Below are positions 7,612-17,740 of a stretch of DNA of 64,000 bases, one piece after another; the stretch's first letter is position 1, and every line of letters begins with the position of its first letter. The stretch is from NCBI GenBank assembly GCA_030646715.1, contig JAUSLJ010000042.1, positions 124,001 to 188,000 of the forward strand. The letters run 5' to 3'. This stretch comes from Agitococcus sp. (lineage in GTDB: Bacteria > Pseudomonadota > Gammaproteobacteria > Pseudomonadales > Moraxellaceae). Under the pieces are notes generated by a model. That model was not told where the DNA came from, did not search any database, and saw only the letters and a program-made list of their open reading frames with translations. The position numbers and the translations under genes were made by a program.

Positions 7612-9519
7612 ATGGGTAGAATTATCGGAATCGATTTAGGCACAACTAACTCTTGCGTAGCTGTGATGGAAGGCGACAAAGTTAAAGTCATCGACAACGC
7701 TGAAGGCGCACGTACCACGCCATCTATCGTTGCGTATGCCGAAAACAATGAAATTTTAGTGGGCGCAGGCGCAAAACGCCAAGCAGTAACCAATCCTAAA
7801 AACACCTTATTTGCTGTGAAGCGTTTGATTGGTCGTAAGTTTAAAGATGATGTCGTGCAAAAAGACATCAGCATGGTGCCTTACGAAATCGTTGGTGCAG
7901 ATAATGGCGACGCATGGGTATCGGTACGTGGCAACCGTATGGCGCCTCCGCAAATTTCGGCGGAAGTGTTAAAGAAAATGAAAAAGACCGCCGAAGATTA
8001 CTTAGGCGAGCCAGTGACAGAAGCGGTTATTACTGTTCCTGCGTACTTCAATGACTCACAACGTCAAGCGACTAAAGACGCGGGTCGTATTGCGGGCTTA
8101 GACGTTAAACGTATCATTAACGAACCCACCGCAGCGGCGTTGGCGTTTGGTATGGACAAAAAAGAAGGCGACCGCAAAATCGCAGTTTATGACTTGGGTG
8201 GTGGTACTTTCGATATCTCCATCATCGACATCGCCGATGTTGATGGCGAACAATCCTTTGAAGTATTAGCCACTAACGGCGACACTTTCTTAGGTGGTGA
8301 AGATTTCGATATGTTGTTAATCGACTATCTTGCCGATGAGTTCAAAAAAGAGCAAAGCATCAACTTGAAGGGTGATCCTTTAGCGATGCAACGTCTGAAA
8401 GAAGCGGCTGAAAAAGCAAAAATCGAGTTGTCCTCTGCTCAACAAACAGACGTGAACTTACCGTACATCACGGCTGACAACACTGGCCCTAAACACTTAA
8501 ACATCAAAGTGACTCGCGCCAAGTTAGAGTCCTTGGTAGAAGATTTAGTGGCTCGCACGATTGCACCATGCAAAATTGCGTTGAAAGATGCAGGCTTGAG
8601 TGTTGACCAAATTGGCGACGTGATTTTGGTCGGTGGCCAAACTCGTATGCCGTTAGTGCAACAAAAAGTGAAAGAATTCTTCGGTAAAGAGCCACGTAAA
8701 GACGTGAATCCTGATGAAGCCGTTGCTGCGGGTGCTGCGATTCAAGGTTCTGTATTATCGGGCGACCGTACCGACGTCTTGTTGTTAGACGTTACGCCGT
8801 TAACACTCGGTATTGAAACCATGGGCGGAGTGATGACCGCGTTGATCGAGAAAAACTCGACGATTCCGACGAAGAAATCGCAAGTATTCTCGACTGCCGA
8901 TGACAACCAAACAGCGGTAACGATTCAGGTATTCCAAGGTGAGCGCAAAATCGCTCAGCAAAACAAAATGTTAGGTCGTTTTGATTTGGCAGATATTCCA
9001 CCAGCACCACGTGGAATGCCACAAATTGAAGTGACTTTCGACATCAATGCGGATGGTATTTTGAATGTCTCGGCGAAAGACAAAGGCACAGGTAAAGCGC
9101 AAAGCATCGTCATTAAAGCCAACTCTGGTTTAAGTGAAGATGAAATCCAACAAATGGTGCGTGATGCTGAAGCGAATGCCGAAGAAGACAAAAAATTCGG
9201 TGAATTAGTCGATGCACGTAATCAAGCCGATAACTTGGTTCATGCCACACGTAAAACCTTGAAAGACTTAGGCGACAAAGCAACGGATGCCGAAAAAGCG
9301 TCTATCGAAGCGGCATTGTCTGAGTTAGAAGAAGCGATGAAAGGTAACGACAAAGATGCCATCACCGCTAAAACCGAAGCCTTGAGTGCGGCCTCTTTAC
9401 CGTTGATGCAAAAGCTATACGCTGACCAACAAGGTGCAGAAGGCGCAGCGCAACAAGCTGGCGGCAACAACAAAGCCGATGATGGCGTTGTTGATGCAGA
9501 GTTTGAAGAAGTTAAATAA
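7612..9519 (+). CDS. dnaK: Molecular chaperone DnaK (Hsp70)
   Basis: DnaK is the cytoplasmic Hsp70 that binds unfolded polypeptides in an ATP-dependent cycle with DnaJ and GrpE. The 635-residue protein begins [15 protein letters not shown] and shows the phosphate loops IDLGTTNS and YDLGGGTFD, the third actin-fold motif [11 protein letters not shown], the linker [14 protein letters not shown], and the C-terminal lid ending EFEEVK. The ORF-track start (7576) is upstream of the true ATG at 7612, which has a GGAGC ribosome binding site. It is probably co-transcribed with grpE, 132 bases upstream. Confidence 0.98.
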
Positions 9520-13804: not shown

Positions 13805-14869
13805 TTAGTTTGAGGGAGGATAGTTTTCGATAAGTTCTCGTTGTCGAAAGTGTAGTGCCGCCAGTTGACGAAGACTAATTGGGCGATAACCCTTGGCGCG
13901 ATTGGCCGAACCAATAGCAAATAACAACCGTTGTTTAGCAAAAATAATGCGAAATGCTGTCCATAAAGACGTATTTGGATCCCATGCTTGTATGGCTTCC
14001 GAACCTGCACCGTTGATTTCCATGATTTTAAAGTGCTGACCTTGACGCAATGCGAATAAATCAGCAAAGCGCACATCAAAACGACCAAAGTAAAAATGCG
14101 GCATATCACGCGCAATAGTATCAATGGCAGCCGTCAAAGCGGGACTGATATGTTGGCTGCCATCCCGATACAAACCACCCACGCGTGTGGAGCCGATGGT
14201 TGCCAAACGCACAACCTGTCCTTGGGCAGGAATGTCATCAATAGGATAGTTGCATTGGTGTTTTTGGGCGCGAAACAGCCGTTGCGCTCTCGGATTCCGT
14301 TGAATCAATTCGCCAACGTTGAGTTGACCATCGCCAACCACTTGCGGATAGTGACGTAAGGTTAAGCCAATAATTTGCCCGTGAGCTTCTTCGGGGTGAC
14401 GCGCATAAAAAATACCTGCTTCACCGTCATCAGATAAATACTCTTGCACAACAACCACTTCGTCCACAGGAAATACGCGTAAATAATCACTTAACTCTTG
14501 GATATTGGCGACTAAACGCACACCATAACCACATAAGCCTAAATCGGGCTTGGCAATCACTGGAAACACTAAACCTGCGGCTGCTATCTGTTGTTGTAGT
14601 TCGGCGATGGTATAGGCGATGTTGTTGCGGATGGCACAGTGTTTTGCTGTTGCCGCCTGTGCTACCAAGCCCATAGCCCGAAAATACTCCAACTTACCTT
14701 CACCCACTAAACCACCTGCCGTAATGTCGGGATTGGCGACCGAAGGCAGTGTCGCGCTACGATAACGTAATGCTAAGCCAAGCCATTGTAGCGTCAGTGG
14801 CACACAAATAAGCCACGTGGGTAAACGTTCTAAGACACTACGCGGGTGATGGGCAAGCTCATGGGACAT
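13805..14869 (-). CDS. ATP-grasp ligase (D-Ala-D-Ala ligase-like), third gene of cassette
   Basis: The 354-residue protein is an ATP-grasp enzyme, a class that joins a carboxylate to an amine or thiol through an acyl-phosphate. Visible elements are FPVIAKPDLGLCGYGVRLV (ATP-grasp lysine and Gly-rich loop), VVVVQEYL (hinge) and the metal-site end FKIMEINGAGSEA. The N-terminus carries an odd hydrophobic stretch, LPTWLICVPLTLQWLGLALR, that could associate with the membrane. The ATG at 14869 is used; the ORF-track start overlaps the upstream gene. It lies 20 bases after the methyltransferase gene, so the three genes 16728-13805 form one operon. The substrate is unknown. Confidence 0.8.
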   Translation of the reverse strand: MSHELAHHPRSVLERLPTWLICVPLTLQWLGLALRYRSATLPSVANPDITAGGLVGEGKLEYFRAMGLVAQAATAKHCAIRNNIAYTIAELQQQIAAAGLVFPVIAKPDLGLCGYGVRLVANIQELSDYLRVFPVDEVVVVQEYLSDDGEAGIFYARHPEEAHGQIIGLTLRHYPQVVGDGQLNVGELIQRNPRAQRLFRAQKHQCNYPIDDIPAQGQVVRLATIGSTRVGGLYRDGSQHISPALTAAIDTIARDMPHFYFGRFDVRFADLFALRQGQHFKIMEINGAGSEAIQAWDPNTSLWTAFRIIFAKQRLLFAIGSANRAKGYRPISLRQLAALHFRQRELIENYPPSN

Positions 14870-14889
14870 AGACGACTCGTGACGGTTTT

Positions 14890-15846
14890 TTAATAATAAG
14901 GGCGGCATTTACGGACACTCAAACCCACGACAGCAATACGTTCGGCTTGATGATAAACAGGGCGTGCCAACTCCTCGCTAAAAACATCGGGATCAATTTC
15001 TTCATAGTGCCAGTCAAAGTCCTCACTTTCGAGTAACGCCGACATTTCAGCCAGAAAACCATCATCCCCATCGACAATCGCTACACCCGTATAAAGCAAT
15101 AAACGACCATCAACGGCTAAATGCTCTAAGGCTTCGCTGGCGATACGAACGCTAAGCGCGCGCCCTAAGTTGTCACCACCGTGCCGATAAAGTCGGGAAA
15201 AATCATCATGTAAATACGGAGGATTGGCAATAATAAGGTCAAAAAGTGTGGACGTTTCAGTCATGACATCACTCAATACCAGTGTTGCCGCTTGTGCGTT
15301 ACTGTGAGAGTTGATGGCACTATAGCGCAGAGCAATAGGGCTAATATCGCTGAGTGTTAAAATAGATTGTGGGCAGTATTGAGCGGCCATCAAGCCACCC
15401 GCGCCACTACCGCAGCCAATATCCAAGATTCTAAGTGCATTTTTTGCGTCGTCATTCGCTAATTGCTGACGGACAAAATTGACAAAACGATAGGTGTCTG
15501 GGCCAAAAAAAACGGCATTTTCACCATCAGTCGGAAAAGCCGAGTGCAGAAATAAGCGATTGCCGATACTGGATACTCTCACCGTACTACGATGCAGCCT
15601 ATCGGTGGTTGTCAATATGTCGGCCTGTGTTAATAGCGACATGATATTGGTGGGTAATAGCGCGTCGGTAAACGGTAAATTCCAGCCAAAAATATCGCTC
15701 AAGGTTTTGGCTTCTTCACCTTGCCGTTTAGACCAAAGACGTTGATGCGTGACAGGTGTCGGCGTGATAAAACGATAGTTTTCATTGCTAAGCCATTCCA
15801 ATAAAGCCACCAAAGCTTGTTCTGATGCGGAGAGTTCGGCGAGCAT
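14890..15846 (-). CDS. SAM-dependent methyltransferase with NPPY motif
   Basis: The 318-residue protein has a class I methyltransferase core: motif I LDIGCGSGAGGLMAAQ, motif II region LTLSDISPIALRYSAINS and motif IV IIANPPYLHDD. NPPY is typical of enzymes methylating amide, amine or base nitrogens (HemK/PrmC, RsmC and N6-adenine families). The N-terminal 110 residues form a separate helical domain. Its ATG directly follows the stop of the diiron gene (TAAATG), indicating translational coupling. Its place in this cassette suggests action on a small molecule or protein made by its neighbours, which is inference. Confidence 0.85.
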   Translation of the reverse strand: MLAELSASEQALVALLEWLSNENYRFITPTPVTHQRLWSKRQGEEAKTLSDIFGWNLPFTDALLPTNIMSLLTQADILTTTDRLHRSTVRVSSIGNRLFLHSAFPTDGENAVFFGPDTYRFVNFVRQQLANDDAKNALRILDIGCGSGAGGLMAAQYCPQSILTLSDISPIALRYSAINSHSNAQAATLVLSDVMTETSTLFDLIIANPPYLHDDFSRLYRHGGDNLGRALSVRIASEALEHLAVDGRLLLYTGVAIVDGDDGFLAEMSALLESEDFDWHYEEIDPDVFSEELARPVYHQAERIAVVGLSVRKCRPYY

Positions 15847-16728
15847 TTAGTCGGTTTCCGTAGTGAAATGGGCGGATAATTCGTGAGCATAACGATCAAA
15901 ACAGTCTAGGCCGCAGCGCAAGCGCATTAATGCACCTTCGGCAATTAACGGTGCACAGCTGGGATTATCTTCAACCATCGGTTTAATCACTTCATCAAGC
16001 CAAGCGCGAGCATGAATAACATCCAGTGCCGCGTGTAAATCAAAATAGGCGTAAGTATGAGGATCAAAACCCAAACGCGTCATCCCTGCGGCTACTTTTG
16101 CGGCTCTAGTTGGTGCGGTCAGTTCTATCACACCAAGCGCGCCAATAGATTGATAAGCATAACGCCGATTCAACGCCAAACCGACCATGGTATTGTTGAG
16201 TGCCAATGCTTGCCAAACGGTGCTATTGATATCGGGCTTTAAATCCAATAGTTGCACCATGCGCTCCAGCAACAATCCGTGCATTGCGCCTTTTTTGCCA
16301 CGCCCCATTTCATCCCAATAATTACGCGCACATTCGAGTTTGGCGCGAACGGGAAGTTTGACTTGGGTGTAGGCGACTAAGTCATCAAAGCCTGCTTCAC
16401 CTGCGACTTCTTGGGTCAAAAACCAGCACATTTGTTCGTGCGTCGCTGTTGTCGCCAGCCAGTCAAATAACGGGTGATGTTGACCAAAGCCATTAACTTG
16501 TAAGGATTCAAACCAAGCGATAAAGGCCGTAGCATCGGTAATAGTTTGGACGATGTGTGGCGCAATATCTTGGCGTAATTGTTCTAAAAACTGCCCTTCG
16601 AGCAACTTAAATTCATATTCGCGCGCTAAGTCATTTTGCCAATTTGTTGTGAGCATAGCGGGTAAAAGACGCTGACTGTTAAAGTGAGCGAGAGTGAGAT
16701 GTAATTGCTCTGGCTTCATAGTGGTCAT
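15847..16728 (-). CDS. Haem-oxygenase-like diiron (HDO-type) protein
   Basis: The 293-residue helical protein looks like an iron-containing redox enzyme of the haem-oxygenase-like diiron oxidase/oxygenase superfamily (UndA, BesC, SznF and CADD are known members). Candidate iron ligands sit in the expected pattern: HEQMCWFLTQEVAGEAGFDD, then NYWDEMGRGKKGAMH, then YFDLHAALDVIHARAW. Such enzymes use O2 for desaturation, C-C cleavage or N-oxygenation. The ORF-track start is a TTG; the ATG at 16728 (MTTMKPEQ) is preferred. It is the first gene of a three-gene operon with a methyltransferase and an ATP-grasp ligase. The exact reaction cannot be assigned. Confidence 0.75.
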   Translation of the reverse strand: MTTMKPEQLHLTLAHFNSQRLLPAMLTTNWQNDLAREYEFKLLEGQFLEQLRQDIAPHIVQTITDATAFIAWFESLQVNGFGQHHPLFDWLATTATHEQMCWFLTQEVAGEAGFDDLVAYTQVKLPVRAKLECARNYWDEMGRGKKGAMHGLLLERMVQLLDLKPDINSTVWQALALNNTMVGLALNRRYAYQSIGALGVIELTAPTRAAKVAAGMTRLGFDPHTYAYFDLHAALDVIHARAWLDEVIKPMVEDNPSCAPLIAEGALMRLRCGLDCFDRYAHELSAHFTTETD

Positions 16729-16816: not shown

Positions 16817-17740
16817 TTATTGTCGTGTTGTCGCTTCGTACAAACCAACAAACTGCTCGCGTAACCAACGATTGGCAGGATCGTTATCGACATTATGATG
16901 CCAATATAAATGCACATCTAACGGTTGTGTTGGCATTGGAAAAGCAAAAATACGGTTCTGAAATTGAGCATTGGCAACACGGGCATATTGTTCGGGCATG
17001 GTGAGCAATAAATCCGACTGACTTACCACCCGACAGGCGGCAAAATAATGTTGGCAGCGTAAGGCAATGTGACGATGTTGGCCTGCACGATGTAATTCAA
17101 AGTCCTCTAGTCCTAAGCCTTTACGTCGTGACGACACCAATACATGGCGTTGACTCAGATAGTTTTTCATATCCAATTCATTTTGAATATGAGGATGATT
17201 GTCACGCACCAGCACAATTAAACGGTCTTGAAAAATACGTTGTTGGCGAATGTTATTACTGACGGCCAAGGGTACATCTAAGGCTAAATCGAGCGTACCT
17301 GCGGTCAGTTCGGCTTCAATATCACGGCGGTCAGTACGAATGCTGGCAATGTCTAGCGACGGCGCGGCATCTTGCAATCGTTGAATAAGGGCGGGCAGGG
17401 CAATGGCCTCAAAGACATCACGCAAACCAATGGCAAAACTGCGTTCGGTCAGGCGTGGGTCAAATTGCTGATGTTCAGAGACACTTAATTCCAGTGTTTG
17501 TAAAGCTTGGCGAATGGGTGTGATGATATTACGCGTCAACGGCGTGGCAACCATGTTCGCGCCTTGACGGACAAATAACGGGTCTTTTAATAAATCGCGT
17601 AAACGACCGAGTGCGTGGCTGACGGCAGGTTGCGTTAAGTTGAGTTTTTGACTGGCGCGAGTAATATTGCCTTCGCTGTAAATGGTTTCTAGTACCACGA
17701 ACAGATTTAAGTCCATACGGCTAATATGCATAATATTCAT
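16817..17740 (-). CDS. LysR-family transcriptional regulator
   Basis: The 307-residue protein has the N-terminal winged helix-turn-helix of LysR regulators (NITRASQKLNLTQPAVSHAL) and a C-terminal periplasmic-binding-protein-like sensor domain. ATGs at 17740, 17731 and 17716 are all possible; MDLNLF is the usual motif start. It is transcribed divergently from the acyl-CoA dehydrogenase gene 88 bases away, the standard arrangement for a LysR activator and its target, so it probably controls the catabolic cluster that follows. The inducer is unknown but is likely a pathway acid or acyl-CoA (inference). Confidence 0.93.
   Translation of the reverse strand: MNIMHISRMDLNLFVVLETIYSEGNITRASQKLNLTQPAVSHALGRLRDLLKDPLFVRQGANMVATPLTRNIITPIRQALQTLELSVSEHQQFDPRLTERSFAIGLRDVFEAIALPALIQRLQDAAPSLDIASIRTDRRDIEAELTAGTLDLALDVPLAVSNNIRQQRIFQDRLIVLVRDNHPHIQNELDMKNYLSQRHVLVSSRRKGLGLEDFELHRAGQHRHIALRCQHYFAACRVVSQSDLLLTMPEQYARVANAQFQNRIFAFPMPTQPLDVHLYWHHNVDNDPANRWLREQFVGLYEATTRQ

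What the first reader, a model, noticed from the sequence alone, without database searches (positions are those of the whole stretch)
13805..16728. Three-gene cassette: haem-oxygenase-like diiron enzyme, NPPY methyltransferase, ATP-grasp ligase
The genes are tightly coupled (TAAATG junction, then a 20-base gap). The mix of an O2-using diiron protein, a methyltransferase and an amide-forming ATP-grasp enzyme is the toolkit of a small natural-product or modified-amino-acid pathway. No known pathway with this set comes to mind.
Basis: inference. Interest (0 to 1): 0.72.

Follow-up and report, generated by a model that had tools for sequence, protein, structure and literature searches.

The report
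Diiron oxygenase–methyltransferase module plus ATP-grasp ligase
Three adjacent genes encode an oxygen-using two-iron enzyme, a methyltransferase and a peptide-bond-type ligase; the first two are a widely conserved pair whose cousin protects dried Acinetobacter cells from oxidative damage, so the cassette probably makes an unidentified small molecule, possibly a stress protectant.

Summary
On the minus strand lie an HDO (haem-oxygenase-like diiron protein, PF14518), an NPPY methyltransferase (MT) and an ATP-grasp ligase, in TAAATG-tight order. All six HDO metal ligands are invariant, and the AlphaFold model matches the lysine N-oxygenase HrmI (TM 0.83–0.86). The same trio occurs in a congener with different flanks, in Variovorax and in Komagataeibacter (gamma-, beta- and alphaproteobacteria). 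The real core is the HDO–MT pair: in a draw of 399 proteobacterial genomes, 14 of 17 other MT genes sit beside an HDO. Thirteen of those are a longer HDO type. Its members in the window's family share numbering E143/H153/H232 and a katE neighbour with Acinetobacter baumannii DtpC, a desiccation/oxidative-stress factor of unknown chemistry (PLoS One 2026). The DtpC paper does not mention a methyltransferase. The ATP-grasp gene is separable: elsewhere it is alone, fused or next to a VTT membrane domain, or beside ornithine-lipid-type acyltransferases.

Most likely the HDO N-oxygenates and the MT N-methylates an amino-acid-derived small molecule, which the ligase joins to another amine or acid, possibly as a stress or membrane metabolite. 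Substrate and product are unknown. Novelty: new variant of a known kind.

The parts
15847..16728 (-). HDO: haem-oxygenase-like diiron oxidase/oxygenase, 293 aa; ligands E107, E140, H150, H232, D236, H239
   Evidence: PF14518 E=1.2e-43; HrmI best PDB match, phmmer 1.7e-32, profile 2.5e-79; AlphaFold pLDDT 86, Foldseek top hits are the N-oxygenases HrmI and RohS; invariant ligands
14890..15846 (-). SAM-dependent methyltransferase with NPPY motif (HemK/RsmC-like catalytic domain plus own N-terminal domain), 318 aa
   Evidence: MTS PF05175 E=3.5e-15; below the curated cut-offs of PrmC and RsmC; adjacent to an HDO gene in 14 of 17 other MT loci of a 399-genome draw
13805..14869 (-). ATP-grasp ligase (alternative start 14908), with hydrophobic N-terminal helix; conserved K, R, D, E, N of the ATP/Mg site
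   Evidence: RimK/CphA-like; AlphaFold pLDDT 86 and Foldseek best hits to CphA ATP-grasp, bifunctional glutathione synthetase and Ddl; invariant K120, R276, D278, E297, N299 in the 367-aa numbering
16817..17740 (-). LysR-type regulator (BsrA/LeuO-like) immediately upstream on the same strand, 88-bp gap; not conserved with the cassette, so only a possible local regulator
   Evidence: PF00126/PF03466, BsrA 219 bits below cut-off 480; in the congener the gene upstream of the HDO is an M48-type peptidase by eye

Best explanation
The cassette is a small biosynthetic operon with a conserved two-enzyme core. Step 1 (inferred): the diiron HDO, bound to Fe(II)2 and O2, oxidises a nitrogen, or less likely a C-H, of a small amino-acid-like substrate, as its structural neighbour HrmI does on the lysine side-chain amine. 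Step 2 (inferred, order uncertain): the NPPY methyltransferase methylates a planar or hydroxylated nitrogen of the same molecule. Step 3 (inferred; only in lineages with the trio): the ATP-grasp enzyme activates a carboxylate as acyl phosphate and joins it to an amine, giving a dipeptide-like or amino-lipid-like end product, probably at the membrane. Because the same MT family pairs elsewhere with DtpC-type HDOs in catalase/Ku-LigD/hemerythrin neighbourhoods, and DtpC limits H2O2 in dried Acinetobacter, the most likely role of the core product is protection against oxidative or desiccation stress. Shown: gene order, recurrence, ligand conservation, predicted fold. Not shown: substrate, product, regulation.
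For: Pair conservation: MT E<=1e-30 in 18 of 399 Pseudomonadota genomes, and 14 of the 17 other loci carry an HDO within about 200 bp of the MT match. It also holds in Komagataeibacter, Variovorax, Sphingobium, Sphingomonas and Legionella plasmids and in a further gamma genome. MT phylogeny: partner type (short HDO or DtpC type) needs one change on the tree, so the MT tracks its HDO. HDO: invariant 3H/3C set and HrmI as nearest structure, TM 0.83-0.86. Trio: window, congener with other flanks (70% HDO identity), Variovorax, Komagataeibacter. Stress link: three genomes of the window's family carry a DtpC-type HDO with E143/H153/H232 numbering just upstream of a catalase gene, matching the published dtpC-katE operon whose E143A, H153A and H232A mutants lose protection (PMC13232832). 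Pseudomonadales HDO-MT loci lie among catalase, hemerythrin, SDR, GalU, YbdK-like and alcohol-dehydrogenase genes (mostly named by eye). ATP-grasp: peptide-ligase fold nearest CphA, glutathione synthetase and Ddl, with an intact catalytic set.
Against: The window HDO is not a DtpC orthologue (BLASTP 28% over 109 aa, E=0.001), so the stress role is borrowed across subfamilies. The window cassette has no stress genes directly beside it; dnaK/dnaJ lie 3-6 kb away. In three DtpC-KatE genomes no MT was found, so DtpC can act without it. The ATP-grasp gene is usually elsewhere, and cassette membership is scattered on its tree (4 changes, no better than shuffled). No substrate-pocket test was possible.
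Confidence: 0.5

Rival explanations
1. Specialised antimetabolite or signal pathway: the HDO and MT make an unusual amino acid and the ATP-grasp enzyme builds a short peptide, as in mangotoxin (HDO MboA with ATP-grasp ligases MboC/D). The product would be exported and act on other organisms.
For: HDO next to ATP-grasp is a known natural-product signature (at least 25 cluster types, PMC13185094). The trio is patchy and sits on plasmids in Komagataeibacter and Variovorax.
Against: No exporter, carrier protein, second ligase or resistance gene beside the window cassette. The commoner HDO-MT pair sits in stress-gene neighbourhoods, not in biosynthetic clusters. This ATP-grasp family is mostly outside HDO clusters.
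Confidence: 0.2
2. Two unrelated functions share a transcript: the HDO-MT pair makes a stress metabolite, while the ATP-grasp gene is a membrane/aminolipid tailoring ligase that was captured next to it.
For: The ATP-grasp family is fused or adjacent to VTT domains (Azospirillum L009, Salinivibrio L012, L080), follows an OlsBA-like acyltransferase fusion (PF13444 + PF01553, L076), lies beside PF13444 (own-genome paralogue L084; Variovorax L008) or beside DUF1989 (L006). Cassette state is scattered on its tree.
Against: Immediate adjacency with HDO-MT in three distant lineages, in co-directional (window, congener, Variovorax) and divergent (Komagataeibacter) arrangement, is hard to explain without a shared product.
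Confidence: 0.2
3. The HDO is not a biosynthetic enzyme but an iron-sequestering or ROS-consuming protein, and the MT modifies it or another protein.
For: Iron sequestration and ROS scavenging are two of the options left open for DtpC (PMC13232832). The MT catalytic domain resembles protein/RNA methylases PrmC and RsmC.
Against: The nearest structures are catalytic N-oxygenases. The MT scores far below the curated cut-offs of PrmC and RsmC. A carboxylate-amine ligase in the trio fits a metabolite better.
Confidence: 0.1

Closest known systems
HrmI / BelK lysine N-oxygenases (hormaomycin, belactosin)
   Same: HDO fold, same positions of the six ligand residues, nearest PDB entry by sequence, profile and structure
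   Different: About 30% identity; HrmI-type plasmid clusters pair with a 2OG-Fe dioxygenase, DapF and a molybdopterin enzyme, not with an MT or this ATP-grasp
DtpC of Acinetobacter baumannii (desiccation tolerance HDO, co-transcribed with katE)
   Same: Same superfamily; DtpC-type HDOs are adjacent to the same MT family in Pseudomonadales
   Different: DtpC type is about 470-480 aa with an extra C-terminal part; only 28% local identity to the window HDO; no MT in three dtpC-katE genomes
Mangotoxin cluster mboABCDEF (HDO MboA plus ATP-grasp ligases)
   Same: Logic of HDO plus ATP-grasp amino-acid ligase (PMC13185094)
   Different: The word methyltransferase does not occur in that paper's main text; two ligases and a dedicated reductase MboB; MboA and the window HDO were not compared directly
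SznE/SznF (streptozotocin; N-methylation and N-oxygenation of arginine)
   Same: MT plus HDO logic (SznE from general knowledge; SznF in PMC13108848)
   Different: SznF has a cupin domain and a 3H/4C site; the window HDO is closer to HrmI
Cyanophycin synthetase CphA
   Same: Closest fold of the ATP-grasp domain; two sphingomonad HDO-MT loci lie beside cphA and cyanophycinase genes
   Different: The window ligase is a lone ATP-grasp without Mur domain, 21.6 bits against cut-off 850; no CphA match in the own genome

Membership tests
HDO superfamily (PF14518 type) | Pfam gathering score and 3H/3C ligand pattern | tested here: met
   149 bits against 28.9; E107, E140, H150, H232, D236, H239 invariant
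HDO superfamily (PF14518 type) | Haem-oxygenase helical-bundle fold | tested here: met
   All-helical AlphaFold model, TM 0.83-0.86 to HrmI
HDO superfamily (PF14518 type) | Diiron loading and O2 activation | not testable with these tools
   Needs purified protein
HrmI/BelK lysine N-oxygenase | Oxidises the lysine side-chain amine to nitro | not testable with these tools
   No assay; about 30% identity only
HrmI/BelK lysine N-oxygenase | Gene context with a 2OG-Fe dioxygenase (HrmJ-like) | tested here: not met
   Context present in L107 and L110, not seen in window, congener, Variovorax and Komagataeibacter
BesC (4-chloro-allylglycine synthase) | NCBIfam NF042919 cut-off | tested here: not met
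   13.7 bits against 500
DtpC | Orthology to the 470-480 aa HDO next to katE | tested here: not met
   28% over 109 aa, E=0.001, and window HDO is 293 aa; catalase is not adjacent in the window
PrmC / RsmC methyltransferases | Curated NCBIfam cut-offs | tested here: not met
   70 of 199 bits for PrmC; 49.5 of 295 for RsmC
RimK-type ATP-grasp ligases | Pfam RimK gathering score; NCBIfam rimK_fam cut-off | tested here: inconclusive
   21.7 against 21 but 19.3 against 143.4
Cyanophycin synthetase | TIGR02068 cut-off and Mur-ligase domain | tested here: not met
   21.6 of 850 bits; protein ends after the ATP-grasp domain
Anti-phage defence system | PADLOC model match to the set | tested here: not met
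   Only partial MT-domain matches (mads_2, generic methyltransferases); HDO and ATP-grasp none

The most novel reading that the evidence does not exclude
The HDO-MT pair, in both its DtpC-type and HrmI-like versions, is a conserved two-enzyme pathway for an undescribed N-oxygenated, N-methylated small molecule that protects bacteria from oxidative and desiccation damage; in some lineages an ATP-grasp ligase attaches it to an amino acid or membrane aminolipid. DtpC's unknown activity would then be one step of this pathway.
Probability: 0.27. Interest if true: 0.85.

Novelty: new variant of a known kind. Interest (0 to 1): 0.58.

Why it matters
DtpC was reported in 2026 as the first HDO tied to desiccation and oxidative stress, and its authors could not tell whether it sequesters iron, scavenges ROS or makes a protective molecule. 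The conserved methyltransferase partner found here favours the last option and gives a direct test: delete the partner and look for the missing metabolite. For the window cassette, it adds an HDO–MT–ATP-grasp set in three classes of Proteobacteria for which no product was found in the literature I could search.

Tried and rejected
Literature searches combining HDO, ATP-grasp and methyltransferase found no matching pathway. A link of the ligase to ornithine lipids was suggested by gene context, but no paper in the library supports it. Defence-system reading rejected. Cyanophycin helper reading rejected for the window because its genome gave no CphA match. An apparent cphA link of the Variovorax locus in a clustering step was not supported by direct tblastn. 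My simple ORF callers were unreliable in high-GC loci, so adjacency was taken from tblastn coordinates instead. The HrmI structure paper was not in the library, so lysine-pocket residues could not be compared.

Full report
Observation. The three minus-strand ORFs are real and placed as described. The HDO stop and MT start abut as TAAATG; the ligase starts either 20 bases after the MT (ATG 14869) or 19 bases inside it (ATG 14908). Base composition across the cassette is close to that of its surroundings. The scan shows no promoter- or terminator-like excess.

HDO. The 293-aa protein is PF14518. By sequence, profile and predicted structure, the closest solved protein is HrmI, a diiron lysine N-oxygenase; next by structure come RohS, CADD and SznF. 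Twelve homologues share E107, E140, H150, H232, D236 and H239. In the profile alignment these sit on HrmI E161, E194, H204, H288, D292 and H295 (read; that these are HrmI's ligands is inferred from the published 3H/3C pattern, PMC13108848). No seventh glutamate ligand was tested.

Methyltransferase. The catalytic part is of the MTS/HemK/RsmC type with an NPPY motif, which in known enzymes goes with methylation of planar nitrogens (general knowledge). It is far below the curated cut-offs of PrmC and RsmC and has its own N-terminal domain.

ATP-grasp ligase. Weak by sequence, but its profile and model place it with the CphA, glutathione synthetase and Ddl ATP-grasp enzymes, with K120, R276, D278, E297 and N299 invariant in nine homologues. 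Fold matches have modest TM-scores (0.4-0.56), so this is a class assignment only. A hydrophobic helix near the N-terminus agrees with the VTT-domain fusions seen elsewhere.

Conservation of the trio. A congener carries HDO–MT–ATP-grasp with about 68-72% identity and a different upstream gene. Variovorax has HDO–MT–ATP-grasp–PF13444 acyltransferase–MFS in one direction. Komagataeibacter plasmids have HDO–MT with the ATP-grasp divergent. In the 399-genome draw, only the window genome had both the short-type HDO and the ATP-grasp, so the trio is rare.

The real core is HDO–MT. Of 18 genomes with the MT at E<=1e-30, 17 besides the own genome were examined. Fourteen have an HDO gene beside the MT: 13 a longer type of about 480 aa, confirmed as PF14518 in two of them, and one the short type. 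Eleven of the 14 are from one family, so these are not 14 independent events. The pair also occurs in other families and plasmids and in another gamma genome. On the MT tree, short-HDO and long-HDO partners need one change (several deep branches are weak).

Link to DtpC. The long HDO type was found in 14 of 119 genomes of the window's family. In three of them it lies just upstream of a catalase gene, and its E143, H153 and H232 fall exactly at the numbering published for DtpC. A. baumannii DtpC needs those residues to protect dried cells, limits H2O2, and is co-transcribed with katE; its chemistry is unknown (PMC13232832). Those three lack a detectable MT; other members of the genus have one 15-22 kb or farther away. 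So DtpC can act without this MT, which weakens but does not remove the pathway reading. The window HDO is a different subfamily from DtpC.

Other partners. Two sphingomonad loci put HDO–MT beside cphA and cyanophycinase genes. In Legionella the MT is fused to an arginine-deiminase/DDAH-like domain. These hint at basic amino acids or beta-Asp-Arg dipeptides as substrates, but could also be shared stress islands. The own genome gave no CphA match but has a PF13444-type acyltransferase elsewhere and a second ATP-grasp gene next to a PF13444 gene.

Interpretation. Best reading: a small-molecule pathway whose core is HDO oxidation plus methylation, extended by a ligase in some lineages. The stress role is inherited by association. 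I put 0.5 on the overall statement: high on the module being real, moderate on a metabolite, low on any specific substrate.

Prior art. HDO/ATP-grasp clusters have been listed by others (1447 HDO sequences near ATP-grasp, at least 25 cluster types, PMC13185094); this trio may be among them, since the supplement was not readable here. The DtpC–MT connection does not appear in the DtpC paper's main text (0 occurrences of methyltransferase).

Noticed in passing
L084:8920-9834 and 7954-8904 (own genome, C43:224925-225986 and C43:224031-224729): Second ATP-grasp paralogue (39% identity) directly beside a PF13444 acyltransferase, suggesting an aminolipid-type role for this ligase family.
   Followed up: partly
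L014:5103-6932: Legionella sainthelensi conjugative plasmid: arginine-deiminase/DDAH-like domain fused to the MT, followed by the HDO; Ku and LigD genes nearby.
   Followed up: partly
L013:1365-9104 and L049:2623-8394: Cyanophycin synthetase and cyanophycinase genes next to HDO-MT in two sphingomonads.
   Followed up: partly
L009:6254-8026; L076:6777-10343; L012:6387-8083: ATP-grasp fused to or next to VTT (DedA-like) membrane domains, once right after an OlsBA-like acyltransferase fusion: a possible uncharacterised membrane-lipid ligase family.
   Followed up: partly
L006:5704-7357 and L007:7349-9038: DUF1989 protein directly upstream of the ATP-grasp gene (Pfam-confirmed in L006; similar sequence in L007).
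   Followed up: no
L107:5704-11640 and L110:5854-11552: HrmI-like HDO with 2OG-Fe dioxygenase, DapF, molybdopterin oxidoreductase and aldo/keto reductase on Agrobacterium vitis and Streptomyces plasmids: a hormaomycin/belactosin-like amino-acid cluster.
   Followed up: no
L108:5851-9520: Vibrio plasmid with HDO, hypothetical protein and ATP-grasp gene between an MFS transporter and GNAT genes: another HDO/ATP-grasp cluster.
   Followed up: no
L034:8467-9918 (residues about 260-483): The DtpC-type HDO has a conserved C-terminal part of about 200 aa with no Pfam match.
   Followed up: no
L048:6517-8430: The same MT family without HDO, next to an EgtD-type histidine methyltransferase gene (PF10017), with a manganese-catalase-like gene (by eye) about 3 kb away.
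   Followed up: no
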